From: Coriaria nepalensis
Taxonomy: Eukaryota > Streptophyta > Magnoliopsida > Cucurbitales > Coriariaceae
Length of the DNA stretch: 64,000 nucleotides
Direction: 5' to 3'
NCBI GenBank assembly: GCA_027186245.1
Contig: CP114495.1
Coordinates: 697,001-761,000 of the forward strand
The position numbers and the translations under genes were made by a program. Below, one piece after another: positions 3,969-54,219 of this stretch. The notes beneath the pieces were generated by a model that saw only the letters and a program-made list of their open reading frames with translations, made no database searches and was not told the DNA's origin. Within the stretch, counting starts at the first letter, position 1. Every line of letters begins with the position of its first letter.

Positions 3969-4727
3969 ATGGAGAAGAACACTGGTTTGAGCACTAACTT
4001 GAAAGAGAGCAAGAACAAAGAGCTTAAAGCAGCTTCATGGATGAAGTACATGAGTAACAGCAGCAAGCAAAGCTTACTTCTGCAAGAAGAAGAATATTCT
4101 ATTCATTCTAATAACAGCAACAACCCTAACGGAGCTGGATTTTCATGGCCTCCAAGAAGTTACGCATGCACTTTCTGCAAAAGGGAATTTAAATCTGCTC
4201 AAGCTTTAGGAGGTCATATGAATGTTCACAGGAGAGACAGAGCCAGACTTAGATCACAGCTTTCACCTCCTCCTGTTATTGGCCAGTACCCTAGTACTAG
4301 TAGTACTACTGCTCTTCTTAACATAAACCTTAATGAACCTAAACCTAAACTTAACCCTAACCCTAACCCTAATTTCTCATCCGCTTCTTCTTCCAATATC
4401 TTTTCAACTTCAACCATCAACCCATCGGTACAACTTCCCGGTACGTTATCTAATTCTGCTTCTCGCCCAAGTGAAATGAAGAGATCATGGGGTGTTCTAA
4501 AAGATATGATTGTGTCTGATATTAATTTATCCAAGATGAAGAAGAATGAAATCAAAACCTATAATTACGGTGTTGGAGAAAATTTTGATGGGTGGAAATC
4601 CGGGAGGAAAGCTGATCATCATCAGAAGAATAACAATATTAATGTCAGGTTGGAGATGGGGATTTGTCCGCGTAAGGACGATTTGAAGGAGGATTTAGAT
4701 TTGGAACTTCGTTTAGGTTACGCGTAA
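3969..4727 (+). CDS. SUP: SUPERMAN-like single-C2H2 zinc-finger repressor
   Basis: This is a nuclear transcription factor of 252 aa in one exon, as is usual for this family; SUP itself is 204 aa. A single plant C2H2 finger with the QALGGH signature (residues about 61-85) is preceded by GFSWPPRSY and followed by the basic NVHRRDRARLR stretch, an arrangement typical of SUPERMAN. The C-terminus DLDLELRLGYA is an EAR repression motif that recruits TOPLESS-type corepressors. The middle is Ser/Asn/Pro-rich and contains NPNPNPN, encoded by telomere-like CCCTAA DNA. The ATG at 3969 is chosen because upstream in-frame codons lack an ATG and MEKN is a plausible N-terminus. SUP controls the stamen-carpel boundary in Arabidopsis. 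Orthology rests on motif wording plus the next gene being URO/TAC1-like, and then ETR2 (as at At3g23130-23150). ZFP10/RBE-type paralogues are the alternative. Confidence 0.85.
   Translation: MEKNTGLSTNLKESKNKELKAASWMKYMSNSSKQSLLLQEEEYSIHSNNSNNPNGAGFSWPPRSYACTFCKREFKSAQALGGHMNVHRRDRARLRSQLSPPPVIGQYPSTSSTTALLNINLNEPKPKLNPNPNPNFSSASSSNIFSTSTINPSVQLPGTLSNSASRPSEMKRSWGVLKDMIVSDINLSKMKKNEIKTYNYGVGENFDGWKSGRKADHHQKNNNINVRLEMGICPRKDDLKEDLDLELRLGYA
4335..4373 (+). repeat. Telomere-like CCTAAA/CCCTAA tract inside the coding region
   Basis: About five or six imperfect CCTAAA/CCCTAA units occur within the SUP-like reading frame. In frame they code for EPKPKLNPNPNPN. The tract is short and coding. Confidence 0.7.
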
Positions 4728-4860
4728 TCGAACTCGATCTTCTGGACATCAGTTGATAATCGATCTTTTCGGAAAAAGGCATGCTAATCATAATAGGGGC
4801 AATGTGAGATATATTAGTTATTGCATAATCGACTTCTGTACTAGCTAGCTATATTTATTA

Positions 4861-4897
<37 letters not shown>

Positions 4898-7800
4898 AGC
4901 TATCTATATATGATTATATCTTTGCTTGTTTTCGTGCTTAATTCGTTCTTAATCGCTTTTGGAACAAGTGTAGTTTTATTATTTCCGTCCTTACTGTGTT
5001 CCTAATCGAGGTTCTTAATTAGGATTATCAATCGAATCAATATCGATCATAATATAATTTGTGTACAAAAATCAAGAGTATTCAAGAGTTGCACTACCTC
5101 AAGGCAAAGAACAGGCTGTAGTTAACCTGATCATCATGCAGGTGAGAGTTTACACATAAATTTCATCTTCTTATAAGGATTGGTAAGTGGGGCAGATTGG
5201 CTGTATAAATGTTAGATTAACTGTAACTTAACAACAAAAAGCGGTTGGTTTTAATAAATAGAGAGAGAGAGTAATTACTTGTACTTATGTACTACAATAG
5301 CATAATAATTACAACTATATAACTTGTTACATCTCCTTATAATTAAGGTAACATGATGTTGAATGTTTGTTATGTGCAAATGGTAGATTTATTCAACTAA
5401 AACTTAAGCTCTTAAGTTCATGAGAGATTTATTCACATATATAAACGAGCGGACGAAATCATAAATACGTACACTTTCCCTCACTTATAACATGTAAGGT
5501 CATAGAGTTACGAGCATATAAAGATGTTGCATTCATAAACAATTAAATTATCAGTTAATACCATGTTAGATGATACATTAGAATGTTAATAGGCAGATCT
5601 ACGTAGTATGATCAGGAGCTAGCTACTGACAAAGAAGTTTTCACTAGATGCGAGATGCTTCTCGTACATATCTATGGTCTCCATTGTTCATAAAGTTTGG
5701 TCTCAATACACACTCTCTAATCATTAGTCAATGTGTTATATATGTCAATCTACTTATATGTACATTGTTGATCCATAATGTTGTAAAGGAACTCAACACT
5801 CAACAAAATCATATTTAAAATAGATCAATCAAATTTTACCTATACATCAAAATACTGTATTATATAACATGATGCTATCGAGATGATATTAATATATATG
5901 TATATATAGAATATGATCATATTATATGCGGAGCAAAAATAAATGAAAAGGAAAAGTTACATGGATATAGATGTCAGCAATCGCTGTCATTAATATCAGC
6001 GATAGCAAATTAGTGAGAGTAGTAGGGGAGAAAAGGGCAGTGGCCCATTTGAATTGAAATTGACAAGCTGGCTCATTGGACACTTGTCCCAAGATCTGAA
6101 AGGAGTTTGCATGTTCCCGACAATGTCTGGGTGTCGAAATTGCATCATGGCTTTTCCTTATTCGGATCGAAAATTTTCTGATCACTCCACATCTTTTCAG
6201 ACATCAAGACAAACCCAACTTCTTTCTCCAACATAGCACCGTAGGTAGGGGCCACTCATCACTACACTCCCAACATACTTACAATATTCTCTAAGCTAAC
6301 ACTTCTCTCTGGTTTTGATCAAGGTCAACAAATTTTTCTGCAACGAAGCTTTTCCGGTCAAACGTCCCTTGAAAATCTAGAGAGAGAGAGAGAGAGAGAG
6401 ATATTCTGGCATCACGATGATCATTTTCCCAGGCTATGTAGCAAAGTGAATGATGAATATCTTAAAGACTTAAGAGACCCCACATGATGATGATGATGAT
6501 GAATCCCCATCTCATTCATTAATCATAACCAGATTGTTGTACCATGAAAATGAAATTTAGTTCTTCCTCACGGCTCATGCATTTAAGTCAGATGATACCG
6601 AAATGTGATCCAGTTTATACATCTGGTCTGACAGTGACACCCACTTCATGTTCCATTTTATTACACATGTAAAGTACAGTAATAAATATGGCCATTCTTA
6701 CTAGCTTTCTAACTTCTAGCTTCTCTACGTACGGCTGTAACCCTGCCAACCATTGGGCCTTAGATGAACGCTTAGCTCACTTATCATGAACAGAGTTAGG
6801 CTCGTTCTGTTTCCACATGAACTAATTGGAAAAAAGCCCAATGTATTTTCACTGATCCAGTATTGGAAAAGAGTCCATTTACACGATATCAGGTTGATGA
6901 TATGTGTAATTCGGATTGCTCTAATTGGTTTGGTTAACAAGACGAGTTTAAAAGTGTTTGGGCATTAATTGGAATCTCTAACGCTTCAAAAACATGTTGC
7001 TTGATAAATCTATTCGCATAGACTTAAAAGAATCTATTATGATATATACATATTTTATATTTTAAATTAATTTTTCTATATCACAGATCTTATATCACAG
7101 ATCGAAAATTTCTAAGATAGATTAGGTTTACAATAAACTAATCTATTTTAATCACATGTTTACAAAATTCTCATCGTTTTATAATCACATGATACAAAAC
7201 ATGACTCCAGTTGTCAGGTTTTTATATCATCTTTTAAGAAAACCATGAAAGCAACAGCACCAAAAATAGCAATCTCCAAGTTCGATATCATCACTACCTT
7301 GACATGGTCAAAGCCATTAAATATAGATTGTTACATAGCCATCATCTGGGGGCTACAATTAATAAAGTTATAACATTTATTAAGTTTGGCCGTTTGAAAA
7401 AAAAAAAAAAAATCAAATTCTGGGAAAAGAGACCCAATCTAATCTCATGATATTTGAACACCAATTAATAAAGCATACCATTAATTACTACGCTACAAAG
7501 ATGGTGCAGAAACAGCTGCAGAAGTGCATGCAGCAGTACGTACAAGTTCGAATTAATTACAGTATCGTCCCCCCTCTTCATTTTTATTATCAAGAAGTCA
7601 CCTCAATCTTTAATTGCTACCATTATGATCACATGCAGGAGATGACCTGACCGATCTATATACTGAATTCATTAAACTGATCATAAGCCATGATTTCTCC
7701 CGTGAACTATAAAACATTTCGGGACTTTTTTTTTTTTGACTAACCCTTCCAGAAACGTGTCAGGAACCCAGAAAACAAAAGAGCCTTCACATTTTCCCCT

Positions 7801-53437: not shown

Positions 53438-53446
53438 ATATAAAGG
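53438..53446 (+). promoter_or_regulatory. TATA box of the ERF1-like gene
   Basis: TATATAAAG lies about 90 bp upstream of the start codon at 53536, in a sensible position for a plant core promoter. Confidence 0.6.
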
Positions 53447-53535
53447 CCCATAGCCTACACCAAACAACCATTAAGCAACTTAGGAAAGTGAAACGGAGTT
53501 ACCAATTCATTTTTATACATCCATTCCTCTTCTAA

Positions 53536-54219
53536 ATGGATGATCACTCAATCTTCCAATGCTCTCCTATTTCCGATTTCTCATCGGAATCTTCCTTCGG
53601 CTCGCCGGAATACTCTTTCTCATGGGACGGTCCTATATTTTCCAATAATCATCATAATTCGATGAATTCGCTCCCACTCCCGTTCAATGAAAATGACTCG
53701 GAGGAAATGTTCCTCTACGGCCTCCTATCCAAATTATCCCCACCAGAACAAGAATCAACAACCAGTCCAATCAAGGAAGAAGAGGTTGACTCCATTTCCG
53801 AAGAAAATCCGAAAAGCGAAAAAGCATATAGAGGCGTCAGGCGGCGGCCGTGGGGGAAATTTGCGGCGGAGATAAGGGATTCGACGAGAAATGGCCGGAG
53901 AGTTTGGTTAGGAACATTTGACAGCCCTGAAGCAGCGGCTTTGGCTTATGATCAGGCGGCGTTTTCGATGAGAGGTTCGACGGCAATTCTCAATTTTCCG
54001 GCAGAGAGAGTAAGGGAGTCGTTGAGGGAAATGAATTGCGGTTCTTCTTCCGACGGGAAGGAGAATGGGAATGGTTCGCCTGTGTTGGCTTTGAAAAGAA
54101 AGCATTCCATGAGAAGAAAAGTAGTAAGGAAGAAGACTAATAGTAGCAACAATAGCGATGTGAAGAAAGAAAACATTGTCTTTTTGGAAGATTTAGGTGC
54201 GGATTATTTGGAAGACTAG
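53536..54219 (+). CDS. ERF1: ERF1-like ethylene-response transcription factor (group IX)
   Basis: This is a 227-aa intronless nuclear AP2/ERF activator. The acidic N-terminal half includes SEEMFLYGLLSKLSPP, the group IX motif around residues 55-70. The AP2 domain is at about residues 97-155 (YRGVRRRPWGKFAAEIRDS ... RVWLGTF ... AAFSMRGSTAILNFP). A basic stretch (KRKHSMRRKVVRKK) may serve in nuclear import. The C-terminus VFLEDLGADYLED matches the ERF1 end motif, but stops a few residues early where relatives continue EELL. ERF1 integrates ethylene and jasmonate signals and binds GCC boxes of defence genes. A 17-bp piece of the C-terminal coding sequence recurs 81 bp downstream of its coding copy. 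Confidence 0.92.
   Translation: MDDHSIFQCSPISDFSSESSFGSPEYSFSWDGPIFSNNHHNSMNSLPLPFNENDSEEMFLYGLLSKLSPPEQESTTSPIKEEEVDSISEENPKSEKAYRGVRRRPWGKFAAEIRDSTRNGRRVWLGTFDSPEAAALAYDQAAFSMRGSTAILNFPAERVRESLREMNCGSSSDGKENGNGSPVLALKRKHSMRRKVVRKKTNSSNNSDVKKENIVFLEDLGADYLED

What the first reader, a model, noticed from the sequence alone, without database searches (positions are those of the whole stretch)
3969..54219. An unusually complete ancestral gene block spanning several Arabidopsis segments
Seen: SUP-like, TAC1/URO-like, ETR2, AHL20-like, DUF668, At4g14450-like, HR-lesion, ACO-like dioxygenases, CASP-like, ATL, small ERF and ERF1-like occur in that order. Known (recalled, not looked up): Arabidopsis has SUP-URO-ETR2-DUF668-...-ERF1 at At3g23130-23240, HR-lesion/At4g14450/AHL20 at At4g14420-14465, and HR-lesion/dioxygenase/ATL/ERF at At1g04340-04370 and At5g43410-43460. 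Inference: this window keeps together genes that were scattered over four homeologous segments after polyploidy, so it may show the pre-fractionation order and a long-standing neighbourhood of ethylene-signalling genes.
Basis: partly seen in the sequence, partly recalled or inferred. Interest (0 to 1): 0.75.

Follow-up and report, generated by a model that had tools for sequence, protein, structure and literature searches.

The report
Old plant gene block, odd start
This stretch of a plant chromosome keeps, in inherited order, a block of genes (with an ethylene receptor and ethylene-response regulators) that many flowering plants share and Arabidopsis has split up; the block is ordinary, but one gene in it seems to start its protein at CUG instead of the usual AUG, perhaps a very old habit of its family.

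Summary
The inherited-block inference holds for the three genes testable elsewhere. ETR2 and ERF1 lie within 61 gene tags in 10 of 12 plant assemblies, ETR2 and AHL in 8 of 13, AHL and ERF1 in 5 of 11, including Tetracentron and Nelumbo, which lie outside the gamma hexaploidy. "Unusually complete" is not supported: DUF668 is truncated, one of two dioxygenases is broken, and such linkage is common. The dioxygenase does not look like an ACC oxidase. So: ordinary, well-kept synteny. Less ordinary is the AHL20-like gene. Its conserved start is CTG, with an in-frame stop 12 nt upstream and the first in-frame ATG only behind the AT-hook. In the 74 of 120 listed homologues holding the motif, the start residue is Leu in 42 and Met in 32, nothing else. 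That suggests an ancestral CUG start, repeatedly replaced by AUG. It rests mostly on predicted proteins and needs DNA and ribosome profiling.

The parts
3969..4727 (+). SUP-like single C2H2-finger gene ending in DLELRLGYA
   Evidence: ORF, zf-C2H2_6 30.0 bits; SUP identity by recall
8069..8578 (+). URO/TAC1-like single C2H2-finger gene
   Evidence: ORF; zf-C2H2_6 21.7 bits, below cut-off
14977..17356 (+). ETR2-type ethylene receptor, exons 14977-16725 and 16808-17356, 765 aa
23428..24321 (-). AHL20-like AT-hook/PCC gene, 297 codons from a CTG at 24321-24319
25994..26989 (-). DUF668 gene remnant without N-terminal part
28708..28998 (-). Small protein called At4g14450-like (no Pfam family)
   Evidence: ORF; label recalled
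30573..32021 (+). HR-like lesion-inducing gene, five exons, 157 aa
32574..34600 (+). Dioxygenase copy 1, broken: frameshift and insert between direct repeats 32907-33037 and 34287-34417 (ends approximate)
35374..36768 (+). Dioxygenase copy 2, exons 35374-35885 and 36192-36768, 362 aa; not closest to ACC oxidases
39070..40417 (+). CASP-like gene, three exons, 152 aa
41176..42815 (+).
43503..44480 (-). ATL-type RING-H2 gene, 325 aa
48558..48968 (+). Small ERF, 136 aa
53536..54219 (+). ERF1-like gene, 227 aa

Best explanation
The region is an inherited collinear block. Its core (an ETR2-type ethylene receptor, AHL20 beside it, ERF1 further on) was together early in eudicot history; the AHL-ERF1 part at least is older than the gamma hexaploidy. 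It has probably been kept by ordinary passive synteny. Arabidopsis shows its members spread over several segments because of later duplications and differential gene loss. The window comes from a relative of the cucurbits and keeps most of the set within about 50 kb, though it has lost or broken some members itself. Shown here: gene content and order; recurrent linkage of three genes in other genomes; linkage outside gamma. Inferred: passive retention, fractionation as the cause of the Arabidopsis scatter, and common descent of the genes that could not be tested.
For: Locus tags among the best 120 rows of each of three protein searches (ETR2, ERF1, AHL), compared. About 0.07-0.10 assemblies expected by chance at 30,000 genes. 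Tetracentron and Nelumbo lie outside gamma (PMC8810787, passages). In a hand-picked set of rows contig lengths agree in 7 of 10, 13 of 19 and 5 of 9 taxa. Grape: VIT_05s0049g00090 and g00510 on one scaffold; an EIN4-like gene 14 tags from an ERF on chromosome 14 (PMC10200900, passages). The Arabidopsis HR-like genes, 6 of 6, lie in the four segments. The window's AHL groups (SH-aLRT 92) with ETR2-linked AHLs of Bauhinia, Carya, Crotalaria, Acacia and Ulmus.
Against: Not linked: ETR2-ERF1 in Diplodiscus and Escallonia; ETR2-AHL in Hevea, Canavalia (1179 tags), Erythroxylum, Hibiscus and Nyssa; AHL-ERF1 in Cinchona, Diplodiscus, Erythroxylum, Liquidambar, Crotalaria and Rubroshorea. The Nyssa and Liquidambar AHLs lie in another clade of the AHL tree and may be paralogues; Hevea, Canavalia and Erythroxylum AHLs lie in the same larger clade as the linked ones, so that excuse does not cover them. 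Only three genes could be tested this way; SUP-like, URO-like, HR-lesion, CASP-like, ATL, small ERF and dioxygenase were not. Tags number gene models, not distances, and a cluster's name and longest contig may come from different members. Many forks of the AHL tree are open.
Confidence: 0.88

Rival explanations
1. Selected cluster: receptor, AHL and ERF genes stay together because shared regulation or co-inheritance of ethylene-signalling genes is favoured.
For: Receptor-ERF linkage recurs in 10 of 12 assemblies, and a receptor and an ERF also lie 14 tags apart on grape chromosome 14.
Against: Unrelated genes (SUP-like, HR-lesion, CASP-like, ATL) lie between; the dioxygenase is not closest to ACC oxidases; linkage broke in several genomes; no comparison with random neighbouring gene pairs could be made.
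Confidence: 0.08
2. One reading: an exceptional, near-intact relic of the pre-polyploid order that is rare elsewhere.
For: Fourteen recognisable genes of the set, one of them broken and one truncated, lie within about 50 kb.
Against: ETR2-AHL-ERF1 linkage is common in other genomes; decayed DUF668 and dioxygenase 1. Full gene content elsewhere was not seen.
Confidence: 0.05
3. For the AHL start: an upstream exon with an in-frame AUG is spliced on just before the Leu codon, so no CUG start is needed.
For: The 24-nt stretch before the window's CTG is pyrimidine-rich and ends in CAAG, which could serve as a splice acceptor; three Met-type rows (preceded by Thr or Ala) also show residues before the site; Ala at -2 in 25 and Phe at -3 in 17 of 45 Leu-type rows hints at likeness upstream; one paper reports introns in cotton AHL20-2.
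Against: The Leu/Met site shows only these two residues in 74 of 74 rows; residues before it are otherwise unlike each other; residues such as Thr or Ile before the Leu leave no AG directly at that place; ten Leu rows are named 'partial', i.e. annotators found no start.
Confidence: 0.17
4. The window's AHL is a pseudogene that lost its ATG.
For: Long end branch in the AHL trees (0.42 and 0.30).
Against: 297 codons without stop or frameshift; residues 61-215 equal the commonest homologue residue in 93-98% of columns; ETR2 and ERF1 of the window have branches as long (0.31, 0.30); Leu at the site is shared by 42 of 74 homologues.
Confidence: 0.07

Closest known systems
Arabidopsis At3g23130-At3g23240 with At1g04310-04370, At4g14420-14465 and At5g43410-43460
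   Same: Same families: HR-like genes in all four, receptors in two, ERFs in three, AHL20 in one
   Different: In the window the members lie in one stretch. The Arabidopsis loci of SUP, URO, DUF668, CASP-like, ATL and dioxygenases are recalled, not looked up
Grape scaffold 05s0049 (VIT_05s0049g00090 to g00510)
   Same: Ethylene receptor 2-like and ERF1 on one scaffold
   Different: Genes between them not seen here
EIN4-AHL19 pair, At3g04580 and At3g04570
   Same: Ethylene receptor next to an AHL by locus number
   Different: Paralogous genes (recalled); no sequence compared
Plant genes with non-AUG main start codons (AGAMOUS, POLgamma2; recalled)
   Same: A non-AUG codon starts the functional protein
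   Different: No AHL was known to me as such a case; three AHL papers scanned for 'CUG' and 'non-AUG' had neither, but no literature search on the point was made

Membership tests
ETR2-AHL20-ERF1 collinear block of eudicots | Intact ETR2-type receptor (ETR1_N, GAF, HisKA, receiver) | tested here: met
ETR2-AHL20-ERF1 collinear block of eudicots | AHL20-clade gene next to ETR2 | tested here: met
   no recognised gene between them in the window; AHL groups with ETR2-linked AHLs, SH-aLRT 92
ETR2-AHL20-ERF1 collinear block of eudicots | ERF1 further along the same stretch | tested here: met
ETR2-AHL20-ERF1 collinear block of eudicots | Same order of all intervening genes in grape and basal eudicots | not testable with these tools
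   no plant genome reached; the genome search not answered
ACC oxidase | Closest to true ACC oxidases among solved structures | tested here: not met
   F6'H1 201.9 and At5g05600 178.8 bits; ACC oxidases 129.0 to 140.8
Non-AUG-initiated gene | No AUG able to start the conserved N-terminus | tested here: met
   in-frame stop at -12; no ATG in any frame between -158 and +148; first in-frame ATG is codon 104. An unseen upstream exon is not excluded
Non-AUG-initiated gene | Coding constraint upstream of the first in-frame AUG | tested here: met
   residues 61-103: window equals the commonest residue in 98% of 43 columns
Non-AUG-initiated gene | Purine at -3 and G at +4 | tested here: met
   AGT CTG G in the window; 45 of 45 Leu-type rows have a preceding residue compatible with a purine at -3, though 43 of 45 are so at the next residue upstream as well
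Non-AUG-initiated gene | Downstream hairpin | tested here: not met
   z-score +0.95; 164 of 200 shuffles fold at least as well
Non-AUG-initiated gene | CTG (not another Leu codon) at the site in other species | not testable with these tools
   no plant DNA found
Non-AUG-initiated gene | Initiating ribosomes or N-terminal peptide at the CUG | not testable with these tools
   no such data held

The most novel reading that the evidence does not exclude
The AHL20 gene next to ETR2 has used CUG as its main start codon since before magnoliids and eudicots parted. AUG has replaced it several times independently (Ranunculales, a second core-eudicot AHL clade, mallows, single rows in other families). 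Annotation has hidden it by calling the genes partial or starting them at a later Met. In the window's species the CUG is essential, because every in-frame AUG lies behind the AT-hook.
Probability: 0.7. Interest if true: 0.68.

Novelty: new member of a known kind. Interest (0 to 1): 0.45.

Why it matters
The block is a clear case of old gene order and of how far Arabidopsis differs from its relatives; a receptor-AHL pair exists at both ETR2 (in many plants) and EIN4 (in Arabidopsis). If the CUG start is real, a conserved DNA-binding regulator has depended on weak non-AUG initiation over much of flowering-plant history, with repeated reversion to AUG. That would give natural replicates for the open question why a gene keeps a weak start codon. 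It would also mean that many AHL20 gene models lack their N-terminus or carry invented exons; the introns reported in cotton AHL20-2 (PMC6977275, passages) may be such a case, which is inference.

Tried and rejected
Dioxygenase as ethylene-forming enzyme: rejected on similarity; ACC-oxidase key residues were not compared. Hairpin behind the CUG: not found. tRNA: ARAGORN none; one marginal Rfam match. Plant DNA in viral contigs, prokaryote genomes and plasmids: no relatives. Literature searches: At3g23 locus names, no paper with three of six; ETR2/ERF1 microsynteny, three listings, none on this block by title; ancestral gene order, 23 papers, 15 listed (one abstract read, PMC3817805); polyploidy pattern, eight listings. 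Three AHL papers were scanned for 'CUG' and 'non-AUG'; two non-AUG papers asked for by DOI are not held.

Limits of the counts. Each protein search lists only its best 120 rows of 1901, 7606 and 4237 matches, so a missing row is not a missing gene. Tags were typed by hand. Four tags of other formats (E1A91, MANES, AAC387, BT93) were dropped; none of their assemblies has tags in two lists. At least one AHL row (Oldenlandia OLC1v1026493C1) was not typed. One search stopped on a parsing error (its first table stands) and was replaced. The contig-length comparison used hand-picked rows. The trees use 39, 39 and 45 chosen rows of 120 plus the window; that uses 77 motif-holding rows plus the window, selected for Leu or Met at the site, whereas the count was made without that condition.
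Full report
What is there. The window is plant DNA. Open and complete as read: ETR2 (765 aa, one intron), HR-lesion (157 aa, five exons), CASP-like (152 aa, three exons), dioxygenase 2 (362 aa), ATL (325 aa), small ERF and ERF1. DUF668 lacks its N-terminal part as far as could be read by eye. Dioxygenase 1 is broken by a frameshift and an insert between 131-nt direct repeats.

Whose DNA. In a tree of 39 named ETR2 proteins plus the window, the window joins the two cucurbits (SH-aLRT 98) on a long branch, so the plant is probably a relative of Cucurbitaceae. 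The ERF1 tree leaves it unresolved near cucurbits and other fabids.

Is the order inherited? No plant genome could be reached, but names in the protein collection carry locus tags. I searched ETR2, ERF1 and AHL and compared tags of the same assembly among the best 120 rows of each. ETR2 and ERF1 lie within 61 tags in 10 of 12 assemblies: Xanthoceras, Camellia fascicularis, Corchorus capsularis, Craigia, Erythroxylum, Pterospermum, Crotalaria, Reevesia, Lithocarpus and Ulmus. They are not close in Diplodiscus and Escallonia. AHL and ERF1 lie within 61 tags in 5 of 11: Tetracentron (two regions, 22 and 30 tags), Nelumbo (41 tags, no contig given), poplar, Ulmus, and Corchorus (different contigs); not in Cinchona, Diplodiscus, Erythroxylum, Liquidambar, Crotalaria and Rubroshorea. 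About 0.07 to 0.10 assemblies would be expected by chance with 30,000 genes. In a hand-picked set, contig lengths agree in 7 of 10, 13 of 19 and 5 of 9 taxa; this is weaker, since sharing a chromosome is not rare. In the AHL tree the window's gene falls in a group (SH-aLRT 92) with the ETR2-linked AHLs of Bauhinia, Carya, Crotalaria, Acacia and Ulmus, but also with that of Canavalia, which is not close to ETR2. The Nyssa and Liquidambar AHLs lie in another clade.

How old. Tetracentron and Nelumbo had their own genome duplications and lie outside gamma (PMC8810787, passages), so the AHL-ERF1 part predates gamma; for ETR2 the same was not shown, as no basal-eudicot ETR2 was in the list. In grape an ethylene receptor 2-like gene is VIT_05s0049g00090 and ERF1 is VIT_05s0049g00510 (PMC6121528, PMC5261597, PMC6030322, passages). 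An EIN4-like gene lies 14 tags from an ERF on chromosome 14 in the Rpv12 haplotype (PMC10200900, passages). PMC8810787 names regions of grape chromosomes 5, 7 and 14 as descendants of one ancestral chromosome; that these very loci lie in those regions was not checked. ERF1-named genes also lie on 7 and 14, and a receptor on 7.

Arabidopsis. ERS2, ETR2 and EIN4 are At1g04310, At3g23150 and At3g04580 (PMC4339605, passages); AHL20 is At4g14465 (PMC7731500, passages); AHL19 is At3g04570 (PMC10416611, passages). So EIN4 and AHL19 are neighbours by number: a second receptor-AHL pair, in a fifth place. The loci of SUP, URO, DUF668, CASP-like, ATL and the dioxygenases are recalled. By that recall At3g23 alone keeps most of the list, so 'scattered over four segments' is too strong. 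AHL is the clearest gene that stands beside ETR2 in the window and in other plants and, by locus number, does not in Arabidopsis.

Ethylene neighbourhood. The dioxygenase is not closest to ACC oxidases, so the ethylene genes are ETR2 and the ERFs, with unrelated genes between. Linkage is explained by shared descent; nothing here shows a functional cluster.

The unexpected part: the AHL start codon. Many homologues begin MANPWW or MANRWW; the window has CTG GCT AAT CCT TGG TGG from 24321 on the minus strand. An in-frame stop lies 12 nt upstream. No ATG lies in any frame between 158 nt upstream and 148 nt downstream. The next five ATGs are out of frame and open only 28-41 codons. The first in-frame ATG is codon 104, behind the AT-hook core at codon 75. 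Yet residues 61-103 equal the commonest homologue residue in 98% of 43 columns, so that stretch is under selection as protein. Among the 120 listed AHL hits, 74 hold AN[PRS]WW; the residue before it is Leu in 42 and Met in 32, no other. Of the other 46, six start with Met at a varied motif (such as MSNPWW), three have Leu before a varied motif, and most of the rest begin at a later Met. Of the 42 Leu types, 25 have their next Met only after the AT-hook core. Eleven of 120 AHL rows are named 'partial', ten of them with Leu at this site and one (Ilex) with Met; in the ERF1 list one of 120 is so named and in the ETR2 list none. Before the Leu stands only Thr, Ile, Arg, Ser or Ala (45 of 45, motif variants included), all compatible with a purine at -3. 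One residue further up 2 of 45 are incompatible, and beyond that 21-62%. On a tree of 77 homologues and the window, Leu stands in Aristolochia, Tetracentron, Nelumbo and Proteaceae and in most of the clade that holds the ETR2-linked genes. Met fills a second core-eudicot clade (15 of 15 rows), Ranunculales (2 of 2) and a mallow clade (7 of 7), and appears in single rows elsewhere: 10 changes at the least, against a mean of 25 in shuffles. That tree is rooted on one row and half of its forks are open, so ancestral Leu is likely, not proven. The simplest reading is a CUG start, old and repeatedly changed to AUG.

Limits. Only the window's own DNA shows the codon; elsewhere Leu is known from predicted proteins and could be any Leu codon. 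An upstream exon with AUG is not excluded: the window has a pyrimidine-rich stretch ending in CAAG before the CTG, and some likeness just before the Leu (Ala in 25 of 45, then Phe in 17 of 45) is unexplained. No hairpin was found downstream. Whether the CUG start is already in print was not searched.

The count of ETR2-ERF1 pairs with one contig length was mended from 9 to 8 of 12. Confidence in the block went from 0.90 to 0.88, since the Hevea, Canavalia and Erythroxylum misses cannot be put down to paralogues. The CUG probability went from 0.72 to 0.70, for the likeness upstream of the Leu.

Noticed in passing
window 24319-24321 (minus strand): CTG instead of ATG at the conserved start of the AHL20-like gene; Leu or Met and nothing else at this site in the 74 of 120 listed homologues that hold the motif.
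   Followed up: yes
window 57105-57710, 59323-60567 and 63111-63998 (minus strand): Proline-rich repeat proteins with arrays of 54-, 93-, 111- and 120-bp units; the last two share a C-terminal PPRKLKPPT. No Pfam family in the two that were scanned.
   Followed up: no
window 32907-33037 and 34287-34417: 131-nt direct repeats, 89% alike, around about 1.25 kb inside dioxygenase copy 1, with a Copia-integrase-like remnant by eye; a short local duplication of the gene's own sequence lies beside the first repeat.
   Followed up: partly
window 173-1938 (plus strand): Cellulose-synthase-like gene (Pfam Cellulose_synt), probably cut by the window's left edge; CslG-like by recall.
   Followed up: no
window 19741-19810 (plus strand): Marginal Rfam tRNA match (29.3 bits, cut-off 29) that ARAGORN does not call.
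   Followed up: no
Bauhinia L6164_025798, 025799, 025800 (names): An ETR2 gene with an AHL20 copy on either side by tag number.
   Followed up: no
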